DNA of 56,941 bases from Ophiocordyceps camponoti-saundersi (nom. inval.) (taxonomy: Eukaryota > Ascomycota > Sordariomycetes > Hypocreales > Ophiocordycipitaceae): NCBI GenBank assembly GCA_003339415.1, contig PDHQ01000190.1, positions 9,031-65,971 on the forward strand. Direction: 5' to 3'. Below, piece by piece: positions 11,181-56,941 of this stretch (the stretch's first letter is position 1; every line of letters starts with the position of its first letter). The notes under the pieces were generated by a model. The model ran no database searches. It was not told the DNA's origin and was given only the letters and a program-made list of their open reading frames with translations. Both the position numbers and the translations under genes were made by a program.

Positions 11181-14100
11181 AGAAGTTAAGTTTTATATTT
11201 CGTTAATATAAGTACGAAAAGATAAGGAGATTAACTATATTATATAAGATAATAACTATATATTAAAGACGATAAGTATTTATCCCTTAAAGGATAAGAA
11301 GAGAAGTTAACGGGTTTATCTTTTAGGGATAAGAAAGGTAGCGTATAGCGCTTCGGGTAGACGAAAAAGATACGTTTTATCTATATCTTAATTTAAGAAG
11401 CGGAAATTAAGTTTTATATTTCGTTAATATAAGTATAAAAAGATAAGGAGATTAACTATATTATATAAGATAATAATAATATACTTAAAACGATAAGTAT
11501 TTATCTCTTAAGGGATAAGGAGAGTAATTAATAAGTTTATCCCTTAGGGGATAAGAAAAGTAGTTAATAAGTTTATCCCTTAAGGAATAAGAAAAATAGC
11601 TAATAAGTTTATCCCTTAAGGGATAAGAAAAGTAATTAATAGGTTAGTTTTATAAAAGATAACTAGAGAGAAATAAGCTAATTATCGCATATAGCGTTTT
11701 AGGTAGATTAAAAAGACGCGTTTTATCTATATCTTAGTTTAAGGAGCGAGAGTTAAGTTTTATATTTCGTTAATATAAGTGCGAAAAGATAAGGAGATTA
11801 ACTATATTATATAAAATAATAATAATATACCTAAGATAATAAGTATTTATCCCCTAAAAAATAAGGAGAGTAGTTAATAAGTTTATTTCTTAAAGGATAA
11901 GAAGAGCAGTTAATAAGTTTATCCCCTAAAAGATAAGAAAAGTAGTTAATAAGTTAGTTTTATAAAAAATAACTAAAGAGAAGTAAGCTAACTATCGCGT
12001 ATAGCGCTTCGGGCAGATTAAAAAGATATATCTTATCCGTATCTTAGTTTAAGAAGTAAGAGTTAAGTTTTATATTTCGTTAATATAAGTATAAAAAGAT
12101 AAGAAGATTAATTATATTATATAAGACGATAACGATATACCTAAGATAATAAGTATTTATCCCCTAAAAAATAAGGAAAGTAGTTAATAAGTTTATCCCC
12201 TAAAAGATAAGAAGAGTAGTTAATAAGTTTATTCCCTAAAAAATAAAAAAAGTAGTTAATAAGTTTATCTTTTAGGGGATAAGAAAAGTAGCTAATAAGT
12301 TTATCTTTTAGGGAATAAAAAATATAATTAATAAGTTAATTTTATAAAAAATAACTAAAGAAAAGTAAGCTAACTATTACGTATAGCGTTTTAGGTAAAT
12401 TAAAAAGATATATCTTATCTATATCTTAGTTTAAGGAGCGGGAGTTAAGTTTTATATTTTATTAATATAAGTGCGAAAAGATAAGGAGATTAACTATATT
12501 ATATAAGATAACGACGATATACCTAAAATAATAAGTATTTATCTCCTAAGAGATAAGAAAAGTAATTAATAAGTTTATCCCTTAAAAAATAAGAAAAATA
12601 GTTAATAAGTTTATCCCTTAAGGGATAAGAAAAATAGTTAATAAGTTTATCCCCTAAAAGATAAGAAAAGTAGCTAATAGGTTTATTTTTTAGGGGATAA
12701 GAAAGGTAATTAATAAGTTAATTTTATAAAAGATAACTAAAAAAAAGTAAGCTAACTATTATATATAGCGCTTCGGGTAAACTAAAAAGACGCGTCTTAT
12801 TTATATCTTAGTTTAAAAAGCGGGAGTTAAGTTTTATATTTTATTAATATAAGTACGAAAAGATAAGGAGATTAACTATATTATATAAGATAATAATAAT
12901 ATACTTAAGATAATAAGTATTTATCCCCTAAAAGATAAAAAGAGTAGTTAATAAGTTTATCTCTTAAAAGATAAAAAAAGTAATTAATAAGTTTATCTCT
13001 TAAAAGATAAAAAAAATAGTTAATAAGTTTATTTTTTAAGGGATAAGAAAAGTAGCTAATAAGTTTATCCCTTAAGGGATAAGAAAGGTAGTTAATAAGT
13101 TAGTCCCGTAAAAGATAATTAAAAAGAAGTAAGCTAACTATTATATATAGCGCTTCGGGCAGACTAAAGAGACGCGTCTTATTTATATCTTAGTTTAAAA
13201 AGTAGGAGTTAAGTCTTATATTTCGTTAATATAAGTATAAAAAGATAAGGAGATTAACTATACTATATAAGATAATAACGATATACCTAAGATAATAAGT
13301 ATTTATCCCTTAAAAGATAAGGAGAGTAGTTAATAAGTTTATCCCCTAAGGGATAAGAAGAGCTTAAGGGAATAAAAAGAGTAGTTAATAAGTTTATCCC
13401 TTAAGGGATAAGAAAAGTAGTTAATAAGTTTATCCCCTAAAAAATAAAAAGAGTAATTAATAGGTTTATCTTTTAGGGGATAAGAAGAGTAGTTAATAAG
13501 TTTATCTTTTAAGGGATAAGAAGAGTAATTAATAAGTTTATTTCTTAGGGGATAAGAAGAGTAATTAATAAGTTTATCTTTTAGGGGATAAGAAAAGTAA
13601 TTAATAAGTTTATCTTTTAGGGGATAAGAAAAGTAATTAATAAGTTTATCCCCTAAAAGATAAGAAGAGTAGTTAATAAGTTTATCCCTTAAGGGATAAG
13701 AAAAATAGTTAATAAGTTTATCCTTTAAAGGATAAGAAAAATAGTTAATAAGTTTATCCCCTAAAAGATAAAAAAAGTAATTAATAAGTTTATCCCTTAA
13801 AAAATAAGAAGAGTAGTTAATAAGTTTATCTTTTAGGGGATAAGAAAAGTAGTTAATAAGTTTATCCCTTAAAAGATAAGAAAAGTAGTTAATAAGTTTA
13901 TCCCCTAAAAGATAAAAAAAGTAATTAATAAGTTTATCCCTTAAGGGATAAGAAAAGTAGTTAATAAGTTTATCCTTTAAGGAATAAAAAGAGTAGTTAA
14001 TAAGTTTATCTTTTAAGGGATAAGAAGAAAGAAGTAAGCTAACTATTATATATAGCGCTTTAAGTAAATTAAAAAAATATATTTTATCTATATCTTAGTC

Positions 14101-17100
14101 CGAGGAGCGGGAGTTAAGTCCTATATTTCGTTAATATAAGTATAAAAAGATAAGGAGATTAACTATACTATATAGGATAATAATAATATACCTAAGATAA
14201 TAAGTATTTATCCCTTAAGGGATAAGGAGAGTAGTTAATAAGTTTATCCCTTAAAAGATAAGAAGAGTAGTTAATAAGTTTATCCCCTAAGGGATAAGAA
14301 AAGTAGTTAATAGGTTTATTTTTTAAGAGATAAGAAAGGTAGTTAATAAGTTAATCTTATAAAAGATAACTAAAAAAAAGTAAGCTAACTATCGTATATA
14401 GCGCTTTAAGTAAACTAAAAAGACGCGTCTTATTTATATTTTAATTTAAGGAGTAAAAGTTAAGTTTTATATTTCGTTAATATAAGTATAAAAAGATAAG
14501 GAGATTAATTATACTATATAAGATAATAATAATATACCTAAGATAATAAGTATTTATCTCCTAGGGGATAAGGAGAGTAGTTAATAAGTTTATCCCTTAG
14601 GGAATAAAAAGAGTAGTTAATAAATTAATCTTATAGAAGATAATTAGAGAGAAGTAAGCTAACTATTATATATAGCGCTTTAAGTAAACTAAAAAGATAT
14701 ATCTTATCTATATCTTAGTCTAAAAAGTAAAAGTTAAGTCTTATATTTTATTAATATAGGTATAAAAAGATAAGGAGATTAACTATATTATATAAAATAA
14801 TAACGATATACCTAAAATAATAGGTATTTATCCCCTAAAGGATAAGAAGAGTAGTTAATAGGTTTATCCTTTAAGGGATAAAAAGAGTAGTTAATAAGTT
14901 TATCTTTTAAGGGATAAGAAAAGTAGTTAATAAGTTTATCTCTTAAGGGATAAGAAAAGTAATTAATAAGTTTATCCCTTAAAGGAAAAGAAAAGTAGTT
15001 AATAAGTTTATCCCTTAAAAGATAAGAAAAGTAATTAATAAGTTTATCCCTTAAAAGATAAGAAAAGTAATTAATAAGTTTATCCCTTAAAAGATAAGAA
15101 AAGTAGTTAATAAGTTTATCCCCTAAAAGATAAAAAAAGTAATTAATAAGTTTATTCCTTAAAAGATAAAAAAAATAATAAATAAGTTTATCTCCTAAAA
15201 GATAAGAAAAGTAATTAATAAGTTTATCTTTTAGGGGATAAGAAAAGTAATTAATAGGTTAGTTTTATAGAAGATAACTAAAAAGAAGTAAGCTAACTAT
15301 TACGTATAGCGCTTTAGGTAGACTAAAAAGATATATCTTATCTATATTTTAGTCCGAGGAGCGGGAGTTAAGTCTTATATTTCGTTAATATAAGTACGAA
15401 AAGATAAGGAGATTAACTATACTATATAAGATAATAACGATATACCTAAGATAATAAGTATTTATCCCCTAAAAGATAAGGAGAGTAGTTAATAAGTTTA
15501 TCTTTTAGGAGATAAGAAAAGTAGTTAATAAGTTTATCTCTTAAGGGATAAGAAAAGTAGTTAATAAGTTTATCCCTTAAAGGATAAAAAGAGTAGTTAA
15601 TAAGTTTAATAGTTAATAAGTTTATCCCCTAAAAGATAAAAAGAGTAGCTAATAGGTTTATCTTTTAAGAAATAAGAAAAGTAGTTAATAGGTTAGTTTT
15701 ATAGAAAATAACTAAAAAGAAATAAGCTAACTATTATATATAGCGCTTCGGGTAAACTAAAAAATATATCTTATCTATATCTTAATCTAAGGAGCGAGAG
15801 TTAAGTCTTATATTTCGTTAATATAAGTGCGAAAAGATAAGGAGATTAACTATATTATATAAGATAATAACGATATACCTAAAACGATAAGTATTTATCC
15901 CTTAGGGGATAAGGAGAGTAGTTAATAAGTTTATCCTTTAAGGGATAAAAAGAGTAGTTAATAAGTTTATCTTCTAAGGGATAAGAAAAGTAATTAATAA
16001 GTTTATCCCTTAGGGGATAAGAAGAGTAATTAATAAGTTTATCTTTTAAGGGATAAGAAAAGTAGTTAATAAGTTTATCCCCTAAGGGATAAGAAAAATA
16101 ATTAATAAGTTTATTTTTTAAGGGATAAAAAAAATAATTAATAAGTTTATCCCTTAGGGGATAAGAAAAGTAATTAATAAGTTTATCCCTTAAAGGATAA
16201 GAAAAGTAGTTAATAAGTTTATCTCTTAGGGGATAAGAAGAGTAGTAAATAAGTTTATCCCCTAAGGGATAAGAAAAGTAATTAATAAGTTTATCCCTTA
16301 AGGGATAAGAAGAGTAGTTAATAAGTTTATTCTTTAGAGGATAAGAAGAGTAGTTAATAGGTTTATCCCTTAAAGGATAAGAAAAGTAGTTAATAAGTTT
16401 ATCTTTTAGGGGATAAGAAAAGTAGTTAATAAGTTTATCTTTTAAGGGATAAGAAAAGTAGTTAATAAGTTTATTCCTTAGGGGATAAGAAGAGTAGTTA
16501 ATAAGTTTATCTCTTAGGGGATAAGAAAAGCAGTTAACGGGTTTATCCCCTAAAAGATAAGAAAAGCTTAAGGGAATAAGAAGAGTAGTTAATAAGTTTA
16601 TCCTTTAGGGGATAAGAAAAGCAGTTAATAAGTTTATCCCTTAGGGGATAAGAAGAGTAGTTAATAAGTTTATCCCCTAAGGGATAAGAAGAGTAGTTAA
16701 TAAGTTTATCTCTTAGGGGATAAGAAAAGTAGTTAATAAGTTTATCCCCTAAAAGATAAGAAGAGCAGTTAATAAGTTTATCCCCTAAGGGATAAGAAGA
16801 GTAGTTAACGGGTTTATCCCTTAGGGGATAAGAAAAGCAGTTAATAAGTTTATCCCCTAGGGGATAAGAAGAGCTTAAGGGAATAAAAAGAGCAGTTAAT
16901 AAGTTTATCCCTTAGGGGATAAGAAGAGTAGTTAATAAGTTTATCCCTTAGGGGATAAGAAGAGTAGTTAATAGGTTTATCCCTTAAGGGATAAGAAGAG
17001 TAGTTAATAAGTTTATCCCCTAAGGGATAAGAAAAGTAATTAATAAGTTTATCTTTTAGGGGATAAGAAAAGTAGTTAATAAGTTTATCCCTTAAGGGAT

Positions 17101-18345
17101 AAGAAAAGTAGTTAACGGGTTTATCTCTTAAGGGATAAGAAGAGCAGTTAACGGGTTTATCTTTTAGGGGATAAGAAAAGTAATTAATAAGTTTATCCCT
17201 TAGGGGATAAGAAAAGTAGTTAATAAGTTTATCCCTTAGGGGATAAGAAAAGCAGTTAATAGGTTTATCCCCTAAAGGATAAAAAAAGTAATTAATAAGT
17301 TTATCCCCTAAAGGATAAGAAGAGTAATTAATAAGTTAATTTTATAAAAGATAACTAAAGAGAAGTAAGCTAACTATTATATATAGCGCTTTAAGTAAAC
17401 TAAAAAGATATATTTTATTTATATTTTAGTTTAAGAAGTAAGAGTTAAGTTTTATATTTCGTTAATATAAGTATAAAAAAATAAGAAAATTAATTATATT
17501 ATATAAGATAATAATAATATACCTAAAATAATAAGTATTTATCCCCTAAAAAATAAAGAGAGTAGTTAATAAGTTTATCTTTTAAGGGATAAAAAGAATA
17601 ATTAATAAGTTTATCCTTTAGAAAATAAGAAAAATAATTAATAAGTTTATCCCTTAAAAAATAAGAAAAGTAATTAATAAGTTTATTTTTTAAGGGATAA
17701 GAAAAGTAATTAATAAGTTTATTTTTTAAGAGATAAGAAAAGTAATTAATAAGTTTATCTTTTAAAGAATAAGAAAAATAGTTAATAGGTTAATTCCGTA
17801 AAAGATAATTAGAGAGAAGTAAGCTAACTATCGCGTATAGCGCTTCGGGTAAACTAAAGAGACGCGTTTTATTTATATCTTAGTCCGAGGAGCGGGAGTT
17901 AAGTCTTATATTTCGTTAATATAAGTATAAAAAGATAAGGAGATTAACTATACCGTATAAAATAACGATAATATACCTAAGATAATAAGTATTTATCCCC
18001 TAAAAGATAAGGAGAGTAGTTAATAAGTTTATCCCTTAAAGGATAAGAAAAGTAGTTAATAAGTTTATCCCTTAGGGGATAAGAAAAATAGTTAATAAGT
18101 TTATCCCTTAGGGGATAAGAAAAGTAGTTAATAAGTTTATCTCTTAGGGGATAAGAAGAGTAGTTAATAAGTTTATTTTTTAAGGGATAAGAAGAGTAGT
18201 TAATAAGTTTATCCCTTAGGGGATAAGAAGAGTAGTTAATAAGTTTATCCCTTAGGGGATAAGAAGAGTAGTTAACGAGTTTATCTTTTAGGGGATAAGA
18301 AGAGTAGTTAATAAGTTTATTTTTTAGGGGATAAAGAGGGCAGTT
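11180..18345. repeat. Large two-component satellite: 36-bp palindromic monomers plus spacer blocks
   Basis: Monomer of about 36 bp (GTAGTTAATAAGTTTATCCC continuing CTTAAGGGATAAGAAAA), whose core TTATCCCTTAAGGGATAA is a perfect 18-bp palindrome. Runs of monomers alternate with a conserved spacer of about 220 bp that begins near AAGTAAGCTAACTAT and GCGTATAGCGCTTCGG, contains ATTTCGTTAATATAAGT, and ends in AATAAGTATTTATCCC, which leads into the next run. Spacer copies, located by the TTTCGTTAATATAAGT core, lie near 11,190, 11,410, 11,755, 12,070, 12,450, 12,830, 13,210, 14,120, 14,465, 14,740, 15,370, 15,805, 17,450 and 17,900. Monomers per interval vary from one or two to about forty (15,895-17,330). 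All copies are RIP-mutated to different degrees. It is not telomeric: TTAGGG occurs only inside the longer monomer. Confidence 0.85.
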
Positions 18346-47151: not shown

Positions 47152-49196
47152 TCACGCATTAGTCTCCACGCCCCCGTACGCCTTCGACTGGGGAAGCTTG
47201 GCCCAAGGTGCAAAGACGTTCTTGCTGTGTTGCAGCGTGCGGCCCAGCTCGGGGCAGTGTCTGAGCAGGACATCCTTCATCGTTGTGTGCTGGACCCAGT
47301 GCAGGCCCTCGGGCGTGTATGTCTCCTCGTTCCAGTCGTCTGCGAAGAAGCGATCGCACTTGAGCCGATTGCTGGCCATGATGAGGAAGACGCGGAAAGC
47401 CGTCTCGCTGAATCCAAAGCCCTTGATCAGAGGCTCGCTGTGGGAGCCGACAAGGACATCGACGAGCTCGATGTCGCCATAAACTTCACGCAGTTCCTGG
47501 GCGAGTGCACGGTTCCCCCCCGTCAGCTCCTCAAACGTCTTCGGCGCCGTCATGTTGAGCAGACGGCGGAACTGGCAGTATCTTGGCACGCCTCGCTCGC
47601 GGTCGCGGAGGATGTCGACTGTGCCGAGGTCGCGGAATTGGCCGTCGGGTGTGCGAAGGGCTTGCATGAATTTGGGGTAGTTGTTGTTGGTGATGGCTCC
47701 GGCGTAGTTGATGCCGAACGAGTAGAACGCGTCGGAGAGACTTATGCCTTTCTTGAAGGGCTCGTGGGCGCGGTCAAAGAGGAGGTCATTGATGGGGACT
47801 GTTGAGTGGTGCTGGCCAGTGCTGGCGTTGAATAGAGCGACGTTGTCTGGTCAGGATTCGTGTTAGTTGCGAAATGAAGGGGCAAGCGGAATCATCATCT
47901 CTCACCCGGACAAAGCGGGTGCATCCGGTAAACCGACACAAACTCCTCCGTCAGTGAATAAGGCACGCCAAAGAGTTCCGTCTTGGAGCCAGGGATGCCG
48001 CTGATGGTCTCGCCCTTGGCGAGGCGGCCGACCATTTTGGTGAGCGTCTCGCCCGCGAGCCCCCACCAATTGGCGTTCATCCCAATCTGTAACGCCGGAT
48101 GGCCAAGCACGGCTGGTGTCCATTCGACAGTATGGATCTTGGCCATGAGGGCGCAATTGACGAGTCGGGCCACGTCAAAGATGCGGGTGCTGAGGTCCGA
48201 GTCAGCTATCGCGCCCAAAAGCATCACATCAGTCGTCGACATACCCTTCCCACTCAGGATAGGCATCCCGTAGGCGGTCGCAGATGGCATTGTGCTCCAG
48301 AACCCATATCGAGTGCAGCATGTGAAGGCCAAACCACCAGTTGTCAACGAAACCCGTCCGCGGCACGCCCGCGGCGTCGTACGATATAGGCCCAGAACCC
48401 GGCATCTGAGCCAGCTTTCCATCGTCATCCGCGGCCCGTAGCGCCTGAGTGGTCTTCTCGTCCGAGCCGTATATCTGCGATGCGTCCCACCAGGCGGTGT
48501 TGATATTTTTGTAGCCGGGGGTCTGTTCGTCTGAAGGATCGAGGACGTCGTCTGGCTTGGTTTTAAGCAGCTCCATCCGGCCCCCTGGCCAGCTGTCTCC
48601 CTTGGGCAGCGGGATGTTCCACGAATCTTTGGCCTTTTGGTTCATTTCGCTCTCCGTCAGTCGGGCTCTCGTGGGAAAGAATATCCACATAGACTGACCT
48701 TTTCATGATCCATCCAGTCGTGTGTTTGGAACTGAATCCATACGGCCGCGAGCAGGTTGAGTGTCGTAGCCGGAATAAAGCCCTTTTCTCGACGCTTCAT
48801 GAACCTCTCGCTAATCAGCCGCGGGCTCGGATTCCAGAGCTCTTCCTCAGTCGGTTTGCGGCAGTACTCGCGCGGAAATTGGCGACTGAACCGCATCCCC
48901 GCGCAGCCCATCCGCGGCATGTCAAGCGAGTTATACTTCCCGTCCGAGTTCCGGGCGTGAACGAAGCGTTCGTCCATGGGTTCTGCCTCTGGGCCTGCCG
49001 CCGCCGCCGAGTGGCCTGGAGGGTAGCCGTCGTGGAGGTTGTTTTGTCTCATGGTGTTACGAATTGCTGCTAGGTTGAAAGCGCCCAACAGGCCGGGGAG
49101 TTTATACCATGGCACTACCTTGTTGAGGATGCTGAAGGCCTTGGAGATGACCCGGTCCAGCAGGCTGGGCTTGTACTTGGGTAGAGGATTCGTCAT
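47152..49196 (-). CDS. Fatty-acid alpha-dioxygenase (heme peroxidase fold), 627 aa, 4 exons
   Basis: Predicted to add O2 at C2 of long-chain fatty acids giving 2-hydroperoxy acids, which decay to the n-1 aldehyde. Exons: 49196-48699, 48651-48245, 48189-47906, 47846-47152; introns of 47, 55 and 59 bp, GT-AG, all in frame. Landmarks match the plant alpha-DOX group of animal-type heme peroxidases (PF03098): VVPWYKLPGLLG near the N-terminus (membrane-binding helices), distal histidine in WIQFQTHDWMDH (H159), AWWDASQIYGSDEKT, proximal histidine in AKIHTVEW (H321), GVPYSLTEEFVSVYRMHPLC with the catalytic tyrosine (Y389), then RDRERGVPRYCQFRR and GFSETAFRVFLIMASNR. Length and residue spacing fit alpha-DOX (about 630 aa). 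There is no C-terminal P450 domain, unlike fungal Ppo/linoleate diol synthases. No signal peptide. A TATAAATA box lies about 100 bp upstream. Confidence 0.9.
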
Positions 49197-50262
49197 GTTC
49201 GACCCTTTTTTCTTGGTGTTGTTATTCCTTGTGATTGACTCCCCGAGATCATTGAGAGACTGCTGGATACAAAAGTCAGCCTCAACGGCGGACCTCTATT
49301 TATATGCCGTCTCAGCTACAGCTTGAGAAGACTAATAATAGGCTTACACCGGGTGCCCGGACATGACGGCAGGCCGATTCAACGCGGTCATTGTACCATT
49401 TGTATGTATGTAGATACTATCCATGCTTGCATACATACTCCGTACAACATATTTAATACATTTCATACATAACATGCACACTACGGATAGGTAGATTAGC
49501 ACCTAGGCAGACACGCCAACTGCTCGTACATATTCATGGCGAAGCCACCTTCATCATTCGTCTAGCAGTAGTAGCACAATCTGTAAGCAATATGCCTGTA
49601 AGTCCCACGCTCGTGACGCGAGAGGCACACGGCCGTAGAACCTATGAGTACATACATATCTGAAGTATCCGTACTACGAGTAGAGATATTGCGAAGCCAC
49701 AAGGGTGGTTTTCATTCATCATATATCGGCGTTAAGTTACCGAAAAAGAATCAACCACCGGCCGTTGGAACCCAGGCAGGTATCCGTATGCCTAAAAGGC
49801 AATGATAGCTTTACCGAGACGGTAGATACGCGCTTGTGTTGCGTAGTAGTATTCCGTGAAATGTCACCCTCCACCTGTTCTACTTTGTCTCGTATGGTAG
49901 TTCAGAGAAGCCCCTGCCTTGGTCATCTGTAGCCTTGTCTGACCGGTAAGCATGCCATCACTCTGACCCCCCCTCGCGTACGACAGGCAGAAGCCAATGA
50001 GGTCTGTTTGAAGGCGCAGCAGGGGGTGTCATACTACGTCAACGTGGGCAGCATTGCCGGATACAATCTTGTGCATCATTTCCAGCCGTCATCCTAGATT
50101 CAGCTCCTGTGACACGGCATCGCGATGTTTCTCCACACAGCAGCCAATGCTTTTTAACCCATTTCTCAGCGGGGGGGGGAATCCCTTTCACCCCTTCTAC
50201 GCTCTAGTTGGTAGCCCGTTGAATCTCATCATTGTGCCTTCTTTCTCCCCAAACAACCGGCC
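49197..50262. promoter_or_regulatory. Divergent promoter region: alpha-dioxygenase / short heme-thiolate peroxidase
   Basis: 1,066 bp between the two start codons. A TATA box for the minus-strand gene is visible; TACATAC and TGTATGTA words cluster at about 49,398-49,470. No TATA box is evident for the plus-strand gene. Small frames in between are not convincing. Confidence 0.5.
49297..49304 (-). promoter_or_regulatory. TATA box of the alpha-dioxygenase gene
   Basis: Reads TATAAATA on the minus strand, about 100 bp before the start codon, in the context CATATAAATAGAGG. A strong TATA box is typical of inducible rather than housekeeping fungal genes. Confidence 0.6.
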
Positions 50263-51002
50263 ATGGCTAGACGAAGACTTGATACTGCCGTGCGGGAACA
50301 CGAGTACATTCGTGGTCGTGCACAGGACCGAGGGCCATGTCCGGCCTTGAATGCCCTTGCAAACCAGAATTATCTGTAAGCTCTTAAGTCTCACCCAACG
50401 GCACCGGCTCTCGCTCGATACTAAATTTGTCACGCAGTCCTCGGATTGGAAGAAACCTTACCGTTGCCCAAGTAGAAGCCGCTCTTCGTGAAGCCCTCTC
50501 CATGACAGCTCGTCTCGCAGCGAGCACCACGGGCCAGCTCAAGGTCATTCTCCGTCCTGATGGAACCTTTGACCTCACAGATTTGCGCAAACACGGCACT
50601 ATCGAGCATGACAGGTCCTTTACTCGGCTCGATTATCGTCAAGGAGGGGACAACTACACCCTACAGCCCGACATGTTTCAGGCTCTTCTCGACGATGCCG
50701 GCGGAGGCCCCTTGACTATCAGGACGCTGGCGAGGACATATCGCCGACGAGCCGAGGAGCATAAGCGGAGTGGCGGACAGCCTCTTTCGTTTCGAATGCG
50801 GTTCATTAATCTCGGTCAGACTGTGTCGTTCTATAACGTGGCACAGATAGGTGGCAAGATATCTCGAGAGACCGTGAATGCTTTCTACCTCGACGAGCGA
50901 TTTACGAATGAAACCTTGAGAGAAAAGCGGCCTAGAACACTGTTGAGGCTGATTGGAAACATGTTGAAGCTCCTGTTTTTTGTTTACATCGTCCGTGTAT
51001 AA
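50263..51002 (+). CDS. Short heme-thiolate peroxidase (chloroperoxidase/UPO superfamily), 225 aa, 2 exons
   Basis: Likely H2O2-dependent peroxygenase or peroxidase with cysteine-ligated heme (PF01328). Exons 50263-50375 and 50438-51002, 62-bp intron (GTAAGC...GCAG, branch-like ACTAA). Joining them gives GPCPALNALANQNYLPR: the proximal ligand motif P-C-P has Cys26. Next is the metal/heme-propionate motif E-H-D-x-S at 94-98 (IEHDRSFTRLD), and FYLDERF at about 188-194 supplies candidate distal acids. PCP-EHD-E is the pattern of the short UPO family. There is no signal peptide, so it is probably intracellular; the C-terminus (LLRLIGNMLKLLFFVYIVRV) is hydrophobic and could be a membrane tail. It is divergent from the alpha-dioxygenase gene and convergent, with 187 bp between, with the long secreted peroxidase. 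The intron-less reading from 50,427 would lose the heme ligand, which supports the spliced model. Confidence 0.85.
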
Positions 51003-51189: not shown

Positions 51190-53173
51190 TCAGTACGGGA
51201 AAGGCCCCATCTTCGCACCCGGAAAGCGGCCCTTGATAGCATCCCAAGCGGTTGTTCCCCCAAGAGATAAGTCCTCAAAGACGGGGCAATTCATCACCTT
51301 GAACAGAGGATTGATTGCTTCTTCGATCAACTTCAAGGGGACGACAAAGTTGGCGTAGACAGAAGAGAAGGGACTTGGAGTGAGTGTCTTGAGCACGTGG
51401 AGACCGACGCAAATCGAGGCGTTTCCGCGAAGCAGATTATAAGAGTGAAAGGCACCGCCGAAGAGGTCAGACAGATCAAGACCGGTAAAGGTATTAACCC
51501 GGCCTATGTTGCCTCCCATGCTGTTCGCTGATTAGAGCCGTCTGTGAATGTATGCTGCATCGTCATCTTCATTATGCCATACCTTAAAAGCTGCGGGTGC
51601 ATGGCTGCCATTGCCTGTCCACCCAAAAGAAAGTCGACCAGTGTATAGTCGACAGGTCTCCGATACCAATTGTTTGGTATACGCTCCCAGCCTTCCCTGT
51701 ACTCGAAGTTGGGCTCGTCGCCGTAGACACCGTAGAAGCTTTTGATGATGTCCTTTGCTGCGAGATTCTGTAAGAAAAACTCAAAAACTGCTGAAGCCAC
51801 GAAGTCAACTTACTGAGGTGTCCAAGCGGGTTTAATCCCATTGCCGAATGATTGGCCATCAGAGCAGGGGGCAGCGTCAAGACGCCGTTTGCGATAATCA
51901 GGCCGCTCACTGGCCCCCGCCAAAAGAAGGGGTTATCCCTCTTGGAATCCTCAAATGCCTTGACGCCTCGCTTCGACATCAACCACCAATTGTAGTTTCC
52001 AACCGGGTCTGGCGACATGTTGTACCATTCTTTCCAGCGAGACAGCCGAAGGCGAAAGTTGTCACCGACCTTTCCAGTCTCGTACATGTCTCCTCTAGTA
52101 TTAGAAGAATCCGACTCAAGGAGGTTATGGCCCGCAGTGATCCCGCGTGGTTCCCCTAGGAGAAGAATTTGTGTCAAAGATCCGGCAAGACAGTGTTGAG
52201 AAAGCATCACATACCTAGTGCTCCGAAGAGGCTGTGGAAAGGGTACTGAACCAGTGGAGTAGTCCCGTTGATCGACCATCTTGGGTTGATGGAAACCGGG
52301 ATTCCCTGCCACACCGTTCCCAGCGCAGAGAGCAGTGCACCGAGGTCGGGGGACACGCCGTATACTGTGAAATGCATCTCAGTAATCAACGTCCTCTTGG
52401 CTAAGGTGAACGGGTGCCATACCTCGATTAAGGGCGAAGATGACTTGAAAAGTCTGTAAACTACTTAGAATGGACTTGGCCTCTTTTCGCCTTCTGACTT
52501 ACATTCACCACGCCGCTGCGAGGAATATAATTATGATTAGCTAGAGCATTCAGCCCAGGACATGGGCCTCGCTGGTCTCCTGCTTCGAAATTGGGTGGCT
52601 TAAATTCGTGTCTTCCGGTCACTGAACGCCTCATGAATACTTCCTCTGCAAGTGCTACATGGGATGATGATACCTACCTGGCACTGGCTTTGGTCCGAAG
52701 AACTTGATAAACTTCTTGGCGTGTTCTTTAAGGTTATCCAGTATATTCACGTGTGGGTTGTTCCAGTCCGGCTCGAATGTCGCCGTACCATCATGCTCGT
52801 GATCGGACTCTTCTTGGTGGCGATGGTCTCGGTCTTTCTGTGAGCCTCGCTCGGGCCAGTCCGTGACGCTATCGCTTGAAGCATGATCTGGCACGACCTG
52901 TTGTCCGCCGCGTTGGCCGCGGTCCTCGGGCGAGCCACGAGTGGGCCAGTCCATAATGCCTCCTTGCAGGACCTGCTGTCCTGAGCGACGTGTAAGATCA
53001 TCCCGCGAGCCTCGTGATGGCCAGCTCTTCAGATCATCGAACGTGTCCTTTGCCATGATATGAACGCCGCCGCCATCTTGGCTGGCCAGTTGAGCAAAGT
53101 CATCCGGCGTCGACAACAAGGCAGGCGTCCCACGCAAGCAGACAAGGGTGATAGCAACTATGTTGAACCTCAT
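51190..53173 (-). CDS. Secreted long heme-thiolate peroxidase with N-terminal DW-x-x-RGS repeats, 547 aa, 7 exons
   Basis: Exons: 53173-52678, 52621-52503, 52453-52423, 52364-52215, 52155-51814, 51757-51583, 51520-51190; introns 49-62 bp, in frame. Signal peptide MRFNIVAITLVCLRGTPA. Residues 49-120 hold three repeats, KSWPSRGSRDDLTRRSGQQV, MDWPTRGSPEDRGQRGGQQV and TDWPERGSQKDRDHRHQ, then a His/Asp/Glu-rich linker. The catalytic domain (PF01328) starts at about 166: RGPCPGLNALANHNYIPRSG, heme ligand Cys186; HNLLESDSSNTRGDMY carries the E-x-D-x-S-x-x-R element as ESD (279-281) with Arg286; later RIPNNWYRR and GNIGRVNTFTGLDL. It likely uses H2O2 extracellularly, but I cannot see the usual distal Glu in a YGE-like context, so the activity type is uncertain. 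The exon 5-6 junction (56-bp intron) was chosen because it alone joins NPLGHL to KDIIKSFYG in frame with family spacing. Confidence 0.85.
53023..53026 (-). other. Start of the repeat module in the peroxidase (residue ~50; module spans 53029-52814)
   Basis: Marks the first W-P-x-R-G-S repeat. The three tryptophans are residues 51, 76 and 106, giving periods of 25 and 30. The consensus D-W-P-x-R-G-S-x-x-D-x-x-x-R is the same as in the C-terminal tail of the GMC enzyme. Confidence 0.7.
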
Positions 53174-54266
53174 AGTAGTCAATGAAGAAAGGATAATGGC
53201 TCAAACCTGACACAAGATCCTCTGATGAGCAGAAGGGGCTGGCACCCAGATGAGATGCCCACAATGCTCGTAAGGGGTGTCGTTTACTTCAATGATGGGG
53301 GTGACCGTATATGAGAAGCTTACGACTGGTTCAGTATGAGATCGGTCAGCACTCAGCAGGTATACAGAATACCCAGACAACTGACGAAGACGGATATGAT
53401 CAGCAGCAGTTCAGACAACTATGAAAGCTGAGGTTTCTTAGAAATGATTACACAAAAGACCTTAATACGAAGCATGAAGCATATCACACCACACCATCCT
53501 TCTGACCATTCAAACAGCATTATTTGCTTCGGGCAACGATGATATCAATCACATCACACAATCCTTCGGACGTTGAAAAAGAATCATTTTCCTTCAGGCA
53601 GCTAAGACCAATCCAGAAGAGGTTATTCAGCTGCTTTTGGCGAAGTCGTGGCTGGCTGCTCTCTACGCTTGGTAAAGATCGCTGTTGAGCAGGCAGGCAA
53701 GACACCGACTTCTCTTCCATTTTGCTGGGATGCCGCGGAGATTCCGAGATAATCATCGCCTGATTTCGGAAGGACCTTGTCAAGACGTGCAGTCAACGCA
53801 GTCGTCTGGTCCTCGAAAGGGGCTGAAACCAAGGCTGTCGTGTCTCGAAAGCCCCTTGAGTAACCCCATTCGTACAATCTCGCGCGGAGATTTCTGCAAC
53901 GAGGCGGTGGCTTCAGCCTGCCTGCGTGTTCGAGACACCATAGCCTGTGCTCTCGAGACACGAGACACCACGGCTGGAGATGCATTCGTGTTCGAGACAC
54001 CACGGGTGGAGATGCAGTCGTATTGAAGACGCCACGGCTTGACATGTCTTCGTATTCGAGACACCGCGGCTCGAGAGAGTCGATCAGACAGAGCAAGCCC
54101 AATGAAATTCGCCTGTCCGAATACATGTACGCTGCATTGATCGAAGTCTTTCACTGGCTCGCCGGCTCAACTATCCCGATGAGCTTCTAATCAGGCTTCA
54201 GAAAAGGTCCACCAGTCGGCTTCTATTGTTGCCAATCCGCAAAAGATGCTCGTGACTATAGCCAAG
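53174..54266. promoter_or_regulatory. Shared divergent promoter region of the peroxidase and GMC genes
   Basis: 1,093 bp between the two start codons. It contains a 32-bp minisatellite at about 53,935-54,075 and a GCCAATC (CCAAT) word at about 54,231. Frames of 80-165 codons across this region have unlikely composition, no family motif and overlap the minisatellite, so I treat it as non-coding. The arrangement would allow co-regulation of the two secreted oxidoreductases. Confidence 0.6.
53935..54075. repeat. Degenerate ~32-bp minisatellite in the divergent promoter
   Basis: Four to five tandem units of the type GTGTTCGAGACACCACGG followed by GTGGAGATGCAGTC. Clear units start near 53,936, 53,988, 54,020 and 54,051, the central two exactly 32 bp long. 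Each contains TTCGAGACACC or a close variant. This could be an array of regulator binding sites or a neutral expansion. Confidence 0.65.
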
Positions 54267-56601
54267 ATGAAGCTTTTGCCTCTGCTTGTTGGCATTAACT
54301 GCCTAGCTTACTCGGCATTCGCGTAGGTTATCACAATGACTCCCAAACTATATCAAAAAAAAACATATTTCCTGATGGCAGCGTCCAATTAGTGGTTTTA
54401 TAGATTCTTACGACTCGTCCGTCAAGTATGACTATGTCATCGTCGGTTCCGGTGCTGGAGGCGGGCCACTGGCTGCAAGACTGGCCAACTATGGCCACAA
54501 AGTACTCCTTATTGAGGCCGGCGATGATCAAACCGACACGTACCATTACAAGGTGCCTGGCTTGAATCTAAGAGCATCTGAACATGATTCTATGGCCTGG
54601 AACTACTATGTTAATCACTACAGCGACGTGGAGCGGCAAAAGACAGACTCGAAAATGACTTGGACAACACCTTCTGGCGAAGACTACGTTGGCTTCGACC
54701 CTCCGCAGGGATCTACACCGAAGGGTATTCTCTATCCTCGCGCTGGAACTCTCGGAGGCTGCACGGCTCATAACGCTATGATAACCGTCTATCCTGCCAG
54801 AGGGGATTGGGACTATATCGCTCGACTAACCGGAGACTCGACCTGGGCGGCTGATAAGATGAGGACCTTTTTCCAGCGCTTAGAGAAGAAGACGTATCCG
54901 CTGGGATTACCCTCGGGACATGGTTTCAGCGGATGGCTGACCACGAGTCTCACGAATTTGGGCTTTGTCGTTCAGGACCCCAAATTCGAAGCCATGGTTC
55001 TGTCTGCCGCCTCTGCGGCCGGCCGTGGCGTCGAGAAGCTGATAAGCGGCGTGCCTGGACTGGCGGGAGTGCTGGGCCGGGACTTGAACTCGGACTTGCC
55101 CGGTCGTGACCTGCAGAAAGGCCCGTTTCAGATCCCTCTCGCCATTGACAATGGTCATCGCTCGGGTCCTAGAGATGCCCTGATGCAAATCGTCGGTGCA
55201 AGAAATCATCAGCTCGACATCCTTCTCAAAACATTCGTCACCCGACTTATTTTTGATGAGACGAGACCCGCCGGAACTAAACCAAAAGTCATCGGCGTCG
55301 AGTATGTCCAGGGAAAGAGCTTATATCGAGCTGATCCGCGAGCGTCCAAGTCAAAGGGCACGCCGCGGAAGAGCGGCAAGATTATGGCTCCGCAGGTCAT
55401 CATCTCTGTCGGCTCGTTTAACACGCCCCAGCTATTGAAACTGAGCGGAATTGGGCCCAGGGCCGAGCTTGAACGTCTGGGAATAAAGGTTCGAGTCGAT
55501 CTACCCGGCGTTGGCAACAACATGCAAGATCGATATGAAACAACTATCGTTGCCGAGAACCCAAGCAACTTCATCTTAACCGAGAAATGCACTTGGTTCG
55601 ATTCCCCGTCAGACCCCTGTCTTGAGAACTGGAAGAGTATTTTCCCAAGCCTCTTCATGCGAGGCGGATACACGAGTAACGGAATCGCACTGGGCGTGTT
55701 AATGAAGTCGTCCGTCGCTGAGAGCGACGCAGCGGACCTTCTCATCTCGGGGGCACCGGCCGCTTTCACCGGTTATTACCCAGGATACTCTGTGAACGCT
55801 ACGCGAGAGTCTAAGCAATGGACTTGGATAGTGTTGAAGGCACAGACCAGGAATCGGGGCGGGACGATAAAGTTACGGTCCAAGGATCCTTTTGATACCC
55901 CGATTATTAACTTTAACTATTTCGACACCGGGAACAATAGCAACAGAGAGGCTGAATTAGATGCACAAGCCATGGTTGATGGTATGAACTGGGCGCGCAA
56001 GGCCGTTGCCAATAACTTTCGCTTCCCGGGTTTCTTTCGCGAGACTTGGCCAGGCTCACAGGCTCAGACAGACCAGCAGATGAAGGATTGGGTAGAAAAG
56101 GAAGCCTGGGGTCATCATGCCTGCTGCACGGCTCCAATTGGTGCTGCAGATGACGTGAATGCAGTTCTGGACTCCAAATTCCGGGTACGAGGCGTCGATA
56201 ACCTCCGGGTTGTTGACGCAAGCGTCTTCCCCAAAATTCCCGGCTACTTTATCGTTTTGCCGATCTACATGATAAGCGAAAAGGCAGCGGATACAATCCA
56301 CGTCGACGATGTTGTCAACAAGCCGGTCGAGTGGACGCCGCGAGGTTCTCCGGATGATGTCACTCAGCGAGGCTCGAGAAGGCCCGGATGGGAAGACACG
56401 CAAGATACCGAGCAATCTTCTTCTACCGACGATTGGGCTCCGCGAGGATCGGCGAAAGACCTTGCCGGTCGCTTCAATATGCAGCAAGCCTCAGGTCAAC
56501 AGTCATCTCAGCAACCACTGGGCTCGAGAGAGAAGATTGGCATTATGGACTGGATGCCGCGAGGGTCGGTGGAAGACATTTCTCATCGCTATGGTTGGTG
56601 A
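54267..56601 (+). CDS. Secreted GMC oxidoreductase with C-terminal DW-x-PRGS repeats, 754 aa, 2 exons
   Basis: FAD-dependent glucose-methanol-choline family enzyme, probably oxidising an alcohol or sugar and passing electrons to O2 (giving H2O2) or another acceptor. Exon 1 54267-54322 encodes signal peptide MKLLPLLVGINCLAYSAFA; 70-bp intron (GTAGGT...TTAG); exon 2 54393-56601. FAD motif VIVGSGAGGGPLA (34-46) with Glu60 in LLIEAGDD; GGCTAHNAM at 140-147; GMC signature VGSFNTPQLLKLSGIGP at about 358-374; catalytic His in WGHHACC (593-594). The second catalytic position, often in a GNTNAP-like segment, reads FPKIPGYFIVLPIYM instead. The core ends near 660; the tail holds EWTPRGSPDDVTQR (665-678), DWAPRGSAKDLAGR (699-712) and DWMPRGSVEDISHR (738-751) with Gln/Ser-rich linkers. 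These repeats match those of the divergent peroxidase. Confidence 0.9.
56259..56598 (+). other. C-terminal repeat tail of the GMC enzyme
   Basis: Encodes the last ~95 residues beyond the catalytic domain, a region GMC enzymes normally lack. Three D/E-W-x-P-R-G-S-x-[DEK]-D-[VLI]-x-x-R repeats are separated by Ser/Gln-rich linkers (ASGQQSSQQ). The last copy, IMDWMPRGSVED, is nearly the same as the middle peroxidase copy, IMDWPTRGSPED. Confidence 0.75.
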
Positions 56602-56827
56602 GGCATTACTGGGGCACAAGAGCAGGTAGCTACATAGGTAGGTAGATATGGCAACTCATGTGTGCATCTACGTATGGGTATAAGTATAAGTATAACACAT
56701 ACTATACGGATTGGATTTGATGAACTACCTACGTAAATGCGTCAATATATACGTATGTATGCCTCTGTGTCACTACTGACTACCATGTCACAAATCCTTG
56801 ACTACTGTCTAGCAACCTATCTGTATC

Positions 56828-56828
<1 letters not shown>
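56602..56828. other. 3' flank of the GMC gene
   Basis: Contains GTAGGTAGATATG and ATACGTATGTATG words like other intergenic regions of the window; presumably the 3' UTR. No gene is seen. Confidence 0.45.

Positions 56829-56893
<65 letters not shown>
56829..56893. repeat. 65-nt poly-C homopolymer
   Basis: An uninterrupted run of 65 C, followed to the window end by C/A-rich sequence nearly free of G. Such runs are rare in fungal genomes and hard to sequence, so length and the sequence beyond may be unreliable; it may mark a contig edge. Confidence 0.8.
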
Positions 56894-56896
<3 letters not shown>

Positions 56897-56941
56897 CGCC
56901 GACACCACAACACCAACCACCCACCTCTACCACCCCAAACC

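What the first reader, a model, noticed from the sequence alone, without database searches (positions are those of the whole stretch)
51190..56601. Two divergent secreted oxidoreductases share the same DW-x-x-RGS-x-x-D-x-x-x-R repeat module
The heme-thiolate peroxidase (51190-53173) has three repeats between signal peptide and catalytic domain; the GMC enzyme (54267-56601) has three in its C-terminal tail. The match goes beyond the core: IMDWPTRGSPED against IMDWMPRGSVED, WPSRGSRDDLTRR against WTPRGSPDDVTQR, and SGQQ/GGQQ linkers in both. These enzyme families are unrelated, so a common appended module in opposite positions of two divergently transcribed, secreted enzymes implies a shared function. 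Hypothesis: the repeats let both proteins bind each other or a common partner (wall polymer, lectin or scaffold), bringing an H2O2 producer next to an H2O2 user. Alternatives: a proteolytically released repeat peptide (dibasic RR follows the first peroxidase repeat) or a common processing or anchoring tag. I know of no named domain with this signature.
Basis: partly seen in the sequence, partly recalled or inferred. Interest (0 to 1): 0.92.

Follow-up and report, generated by a model that had tools for sequence, protein, structure and literature searches.

The report
Shared docking-like repeat on fungal enzymes
In a zombie-ant fungus, two neighbouring secreted enzymes of unrelated families, and a cysteine-rich secreted protein elsewhere in the genome, carry the same short, strongly conserved repeat, which looks like a tag that gathers them at one place outside the cell.

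Summary
Confirmed. The window is from the ant fungus Ophiocordyceps camponoti-saundersi (its peroxidase is CP533_2565). Three W-x-x-R-G-S-x-x-D-x-x-x-R repeats lie between signal peptide and heme-thiolate peroxidase domain, and three in the C-terminal tail of the divergent GMC gene; shuffled tails hardly ever give one. The genome holds a third carrier, an 840-aa Cys-rich protein, apparently secreted, on another contig with three C-terminal repeats; the scans showed no further multi-copy carrier. All named carriers are Ophiocordycipitaceae: 5 of 120 listed peroxidases, own included, have the array. Between three named species the six core residues are 94-100% identical, linkers 42-74%. No Pfam or PDB family matches the peroxidase and GMC repeats above chance. 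Best reading: a short Trp-turn-helix docking repeat that brings an oxidoreductase pair and a wall- or matrix-like protein to one partner. Binding is untested. H2O2 production is not shown: the GMC has Phe at the second catalytic position. Peptide release is conceivable mainly after repeat 1 of the two enzymes.

The parts
51190..53173 (-). Heme-thiolate peroxidase gene, 7 exons (53173-52678, 52621-52503, 52453-52423, 52364-52215, 52155-51814, 51757-51583, 51520-51190), 547 aa, apparently secreted
   Evidence: splice model, identical to database protein P0004 = CP533_2565; Peroxidase_2 PF01328 at residues 170-414, E 3.6e-34. Signal peptide judged by eye.
52985..53023 (-). Peroxidase repeat 1, WPSRGSRDDLTRR
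   Evidence: ends in the conserved RR
52910..52948 (-). Peroxidase repeat 2, WPTRGSPEDRGQR
52820..52858 (-). Peroxidase repeat 3, WPERGSQKDRDHR
54267..56601 (+). GMC oxidoreductase gene, 2 exons (54267-54322, 54393-56601), 754 aa, apparently secreted, with a tail of about 100 aa
   Evidence: model; PF00732 and PF05199; relatives P0001-P0003. Signal peptide judged by eye.
56332..56370 (+). GMC repeat 1, WTPRGSPDDVTQR
56434..56472 (+). GMC repeat 2, WAPRGSAKDLAGR
56551..56589 (+). GMC repeat 3, WMPRGSVEDISHR, followed by the C-terminal YGW
   Evidence: R-[YF]-G-[WL] end in 3 of 3 relatives found
50263..51002 (+). Neighbouring small Peroxidase_2 gene, 2 exons, no signal peptide seen, no repeat
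47155..49295 (-). Neighbouring animal-haem-peroxidase (PF03098) gene, no repeat
   Evidence: two of its open frames tested

Best explanation
A lineage-specific, secreted docking repeat. Each unit of about 13 residues (W-x-x-R-G-S-x-x-D-x-x-x-R, mostly D/E before the W) is a Trp-containing turn followed by a short helix that the Ser starts (Ser as N-cap with an acid three residues on). Three or four units sit on flexible, fast-evolving linkers. The array gives multivalent binding to one extracellular partner (a wall polymer, a receptor, or other copies of the repeat), so that the peroxidase, the GMC enzyme and the Cys-rich protein end up at the same place, probably a wall or extracellular matrix. 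Shown: the repeats, their conservation, three carriers in one genome, presence in Ophiocordyceps and Hirsutella and absence from the other listed peroxidases. Inferred: secretion, helix, multivalency. Not shown: the partner, the binding, the place.
For: Same six-residue core in 9 of 9 repeats of three unrelated proteins. Core kept in 17 of 18 (peroxidase) and 18 of 18 (GMC) positions against O. polyrhachis-furcata and 18 of 18 in both against O. unilateralis, while linkers are 42-74% and the rest of the proteins 77-91% identical. The third carrier is Cys-rich with a hydrophobic N-terminus and no paralogue found. The module is N-terminal in one protein and C-terminal in two, as appended binding modules can be. 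In the AlphaFold2 model of the peroxidase the only helices between residues 50 and 130 are 57-65, 82-87 and 112-121, each starting right after the Ser of a unit. The array is kept where the motif drifts: Hirsutella minnesotensis has four units at an exact 29-residue period, O. sinensis six degenerate W..R units.
Against: No binding data and no candidate partner. All three carriers bear the same 'plug'; none shows a 'socket'. The helix rests on a low-confidence model (mean pLDDT 61.2, about 50-60 at the units); the GMC model failed (28.5) and is not used. In O. sinensis no unit matches W..RG[ST], and in the unnamed GMC P0003 the core is only 13 of 18 identical. The third carrier is known from one genome only. 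Looser DNA patterns are only mildly above their reversed controls (258 against 207; 222 against 167), so single motif hits elsewhere mean nothing.
Confidence: 0.48

Rival explanations
1. The repeat is a propeptide or a source of released peptides: the secretory pathway cuts at basic residues and the peptides, not the enzyme tails, are the product (like KEX2-processed repeat proteins).
For: Units end in R. A dibasic pair lies within residues 12-17 of repeat 1 in 3 of 3 Ophiocordyceps peroxidases with the intact motif (RR) and in 3 of 3 named-species GMC proteins (RR, RK, RK), and after 2 of 4 units in Hirsutella. One search had counted only KR and RR and so missed the two RK; this rival was raised from 0.12 to 0.15 for that.
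Against: Repeats 2 and 3 of those six proteins and all three repeats of the third carrier have none; 9 of 27 in all. KEPs are described as cores flanked by KEX2 sites (PMC9769878, passages read).
Confidence: 0.15
2. The repeat is a sorting or retention signal inside the secretory pathway (for example vacuole, septum or spore-wall vesicles) read by one receptor, not an extracellular binder.
For: Same short motif on unrelated proteins at either end; core conserved, linkers free.
Against: Three or four copies with long spacers are more than a sorting signal usually needs (recalled).
Confidence: 0.2
3. The repeats are substrates: the peroxidase oxidises their Trp residues and cross-links the three proteins into a wall, as has been proposed for parasite oocyst walls with Tyr (recalled).
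For: Trp is invariant in the nine units; a peroxidase and a Cys-rich protein share the array; two more heme peroxidase genes stand next door.
Against: Tyr, the usual cross-link residue (recalled), is not part of the core. R, G, S, D, R are as invariant as W, which cross-linking alone would not need.
Confidence: 0.08
4. Drift: a repeat expansion copied between genes, without a function of its own.
For: Two carriers are neighbours. Codons agree: Ser TCN in 9 of 9, both Arg CGN in 18 of 18, against 72% each in the three genes (62% and 76% in three other window open frames), a hint of common descent of the units.
Against: Core conserved across species while linkers diverge; third carrier on another contig; units no more than slightly more alike within a gene than between genes (mean DNA identity 0.60-0.65 against 0.58-0.62), so no recent copying.
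Confidence: 0.07

Closest known systems
Fungal and bacterial dockerins (cellulosome)
   Same: Short modules, often in tandem, appended to unrelated secreted enzymes to gather them on a partner (works-like comparison; recalled, with listing and abstract openings seen).
   Different: No Cys in any of 10 tails, no convincing Pfam match, no scaffoldin or cohesin counterpart identified; carriers are oxidoreductases and a Cys-rich protein.
PIR wall proteins (proteins with internal repeats)
   Same: Short internal repeats shared by several secreted ascomycete proteins, after the signal peptide, for wall attachment (recalled).
   Different: The PIR signature DGQ-hydrophobic-Q (recalled) occurs 0 times in 10 of 10 tails.
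KEX2-processed repeat proteins and dikaritin precursors
   Same: Secreted, repeats of short peptides, basic residues nearby; a dibasic pair after repeat 1 in six Ophiocordyceps enzymes.
   Different: Dibasic pairs at only 9 of 27 repeats; the repeats sit on full-length enzymes.
Oocyst wall proteins (COWP/OWP) of Apicomplexa
   Same: The third carrier is built of about 31 two-Cys units of roughly 19 residues (67 Cys in 840 aa). Resemblance recalled, not tested.
   Different: COWP type I repeats have six Cys each (PMC4514997, passages read). No Pfam match above chance and no PDB match.

Membership tests
Peroxidase_2 heme-thiolate peroxidases | PF01328 domain with PCP heme-ligand motif | tested here: met
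   119.3 bits against cut-off 26.9; GPCP and LNALAN invariant, the G between them nearly so, in the 27-row alignment
GMC oxidoreductases | PF00732 and PF05199 | tested here: met
   61.8 and 102.1 bits, above cut-offs 23 and 24.6
GMC oxidases (H2O2-forming) | catalytic His plus second His/Asn (recalled) | tested here: not met
   First His aligned with that of choline oxidase; Phe of PGYFIV aligned with an Asn of choline oxidase and a His of alcohol oxidase 8rpf; Phe in 4 of 4 aligned proteins, own included. Activity itself cannot be tested here.
KEX2-processed repeat proteins | repeat cores flanked by KEX2 (dibasic) sites | tested here: not met
   9 of 27 repeats have a dibasic pair within residues 12-17; repeat 1 in six Ophiocordyceps enzymes, 2 of 4 in Hirsutella, 1 of 2 in P0003, 0 of 3 in the third carrier
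PIR proteins | DGQ-hydrophobic-Q repeats (recalled) | tested here: not met
   0 matches in 10 of 10 tails
Fungal dockerins | Cys-rich domain of about 40 aa with a Pfam model (recalled) | tested here: not met
   No Cys in 10 of 10 tails; no Pfam family for the peroxidase and GMC stretches at E 10, only DUF4548 at E 0.15 for the third
Apicomplexan oocyst wall proteins | six-Cys type I repeats | tested here: inconclusive
   Third carrier has mostly C-x10-C-x7 spacing; no direct comparison with a COWP was made

The most novel reading that the evidence does not exclude
Ophiocordycipitaceae have their own extracellular docking system: a Cys-free W-x-x-R-G-S-x-x-D-x-x-x-R repeat that assembles a peroxidase, a GMC oxidoreductase and a Cys-rich structural protein into one complex on the wall or matrix, a fungal counterpart of the dockerin principle evolved independently and used for redox chemistry.
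Probability: 0.3. Interest if true: 0.82.

Novelty: new variant of a known kind. Interest (0 to 1): 0.6.

Why it matters
Secreted ascomycete enzymes are mostly thought to act singly (recalled). A shared, strongly selected repeat on two neighbouring redox enzymes and on a Cys-rich protein would be a handle on how an insect pathogen arranges its secreted oxidative machinery, and a short portable tag with a clear mutational test (the invariant Trp).

Tried and rejected
Low-complexity artefact: rejected. The strict DNA pattern matches 24 places (16 for the reversed control); 11 encode [DE]W..RGS..[DE], 8 of them in the three genes and 3 single. None of those 3 carries the closing R/K in the fetched loci (loci L049, L059, L071 held). 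With CGN/TCN codons 31 places match against 11 for the reversed control; 9 lie in the three genes, and no two of the other 22 are closer than 36 kb. Wrong gene model: rejected. Tail as a normal part of either family: rejected. 115 of 120 listed peroxidases have fewer than two W..R before the heme motif (one of them, P0064, has a long N-terminus without the motif), and the three close GMC paralogues lie in open frames of 635-653 aa that leave no room for the tail; a tail in a further exon is not excluded there, but searches show no motif near them.

A fourth carrier family: not found, but the test was weak. A query of 21 natural repeats returned 6 proteins, 4 peroxidases and 2 GMC; it missed the known carrier P0003 (648 aa, in range), P0008 and the third carrier, covered 330-1050 aa, and scored only the 7993 candidates sharing most words. 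The candidate at C21 (E 1.3) has no repeat array. Listing all W..RGS..[DE] places regardless of codons was not possible: one search counts 222 and lists about the first 100. The GMC fold failed for want of homologues.

Literature: searches. Oocyst wall protein with Ophiocordyceps or with ascomycete terms, and tandem repeat wall proteins in Ophiocordyceps, gave 0 papers. Word searches inside papers: PMC7341126 and PMC5624889 have no peroxidase or GMC in the main text; PMC11057048, which covers this species, has no peroxidase, GMC or repeat; PMC5432009 on O. sinensis reports an expansion of PF01328 peroxidases and of GMC oxidoreductases, tied to detoxification and to insect moulting hormone (passages), with no repeat mentioned in the passages seen. 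No search could use the motif itself, so I cannot say that it is not in print.
Full report
Where it is. The window is contig C100, bases 9031-65971, of a 45.7-Mb assembly. The peroxidase is 100% identical over 547 residues to CP533_2565 of Ophiocordyceps camponoti-saundersi, on a contig of 65,971 bases, the length of C100. The species belongs to the Ophiocordycipitaceae and is treated in a paper on the O. unilateralis complex of ant pathogens (PMC11057048, passages; abstract opening).

What is there. The peroxidase gene (minus, 53173-51190, 7 exons) encodes a hydrophobic N-terminus that I take for a signal peptide, three repeats at residues 51, 76 and 106, and a Peroxidase_2 domain from residue 170. 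The GMC gene (plus, 54267-56601, 2 exons) encodes a likely signal peptide, the two GMC domains and three repeats at residues 666, 700 and 739, near the end of the protein. Pfam has no family for either repeat stretch and the PDB only chance-level matches.

A third carrier. DNA-pattern scans of the genome showed three more units close together on contig C47. They are the C-terminal part of one open frame (864 codons; 840 aa from the first plausible Met) with a hydrophobic N-terminus and 67 Cys in about 31 units of mostly C-x10-C-x7 spacing. Its units are DWPQRGSSEDISQR, DWHKRGSAEDVAAR and DWPARGSAQDLSER. No paralogue was found in the genome, no Pfam family at E 0.01 (only weak matches at E 10), no NCBIfam family and no PDB relative at E 0.1. 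In the nine units of the three proteins W, R, G, S, D and R are invariant.

How rare. A protein probe of three units finds the same three loci, plus one chance match. Of 24 places matching the strict DNA pattern (16 for its reversed control), 11 encode [DE]W..RGS..[DE] (the script filled in the last base, so D and E are not told apart there), 8 of them in the three genes. The pattern with CGN and TCN codons matches 31 places, against 11 for the reversed control; 9 are in the three genes. Looser patterns are only mildly above control (258 against 207; 222 against 167), and their lists are cut, so further diverged carriers are not excluded. If such a fungus has about 8,000 genes (assumed), the chance that any two of three random carriers are neighbours is below one in a thousand, a rough figure of mine.

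Who has it. Of the 120 peroxidases listed (of 444 at E 0.001), 5 have the N-terminal extension with two or more W..R: the window's own, O. polyrhachis-furcata, O. unilateralis, Hirsutella minnesotensis (four units, exact 29-residue period, not all strict) and O. sinensis (six degenerate units). H. minnesotensis is in the same family. The other 115 have none or one W..R there. The GMC tail search returned 3 proteins: O. polyrhachis-furcata, O. unilateralis and one unnamed, with 3, 3 and 2 clean units. In O. unilateralis the two genes have consecutive locus tags (XA68_17453, XA68_17454); in O. polyrhachis-furcata they are on contigs of the same length, 5,280,523, presumably one contig, with tags 18 apart.

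Selection. Against O. polyrhachis-furcata and O. unilateralis the core is 17/18 and 18/18 identical in the peroxidase and 18/18 and 18/18 in the GMC; variable positions inside the motif 42-71%, linkers 42-74%, the rest of the protein 77-91%. Against the unnamed P0003 the figures are 13/18, 33%, 21% and 64%, its middle unit having decayed. So the core is held more tightly than the rest of the protein and the linkers less tightly, as expected of short binding motifs on flexible arms. Codon classes (Ser TCN 9/9, Arg CGN 18/18, background 72%) hint that the units descend from one another, though repeats within a gene are not independent. Units are hardly more alike within a gene than between genes, so the spread is not recent.

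Structure. In the AlphaFold2 model of the peroxidase (27 sequences, mean pLDDT 61.2) the only helices between residues 50 and 130 start right after the Ser of each unit (57-65, 82-87, 112-121), in an otherwise unordered stretch. With S-x-x-D this is the pattern of a helix N-cap. The confidence there is low, so it is a lead. The GMC model failed.

What it does. I favour docking: three unrelated proteins with secretory N-termini, the same multivalent array at either end, core-only conservation. All three carry the same element and none an obvious receptor, so either a fourth partner (polymer, receptor) or repeat-to-repeat contact is needed. The Cys-rich protein suggests a wall or matrix. Processing is not excluded: a dibasic pair follows repeat 1 in six Ophiocordyceps enzymes, though only 9 of 27 repeats have one and the third carrier has none; I raised that rival from 0.12 to 0.15 and lowered docking from 0.50 to 0.48 for it. 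The H2O2 relay is unproven: the GMC keeps the His aligned with the first catalytic His of choline oxidase, and a His at the place of that enzyme's FAD-linked His (roles recalled), but has Phe at the second catalytic position, as do 4 of 4 aligned proteins. Others link peroxidase and GMC expansions in O. sinensis to detoxification and to moulting hormone (PMC5432009, passages), which would give each enzyme a role without any relay.

Verdict. A real, apparently lineage-restricted secreted repeat with three carriers, which I found named nowhere in what I searched. Function inferred, not shown. It works like a docking or wall-attachment module and is a member of none of the repeat families tested.

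Noticed in passing
window 47155-51002: Two further heme peroxidase genes, an animal-haem peroxidase and a small Peroxidase_2 without visible signal peptide, stand beside the pair, so three heme peroxidases and a GMC lie within 9.5 kb. Neither carries the repeat.
   Followed up: partly
window 56821-56941: The contig ends 340 bases after the GMC gene, just past a poly-C run, so genes beyond it are unseen.
   Followed up: no
L039:5389-7908 (minus): The Cys-rich third carrier is built of about 31 two-Cys units and has no Pfam family above cut-off; a possible new wall-protein family.
   Followed up: partly
window 13339-17335 (minus): Long open frames made of a short repeated unit (LINYFSYPLRDK-like), probably a minisatellite and not genes.
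   Followed up: no
P0004, P0005, P0006 and the GMC proteins, just after repeat 1: A dibasic pair follows the first repeat in three peroxidases (RR) and three GMC proteins (RR, RK, RK); a single processing site there is possible.
   Followed up: partly
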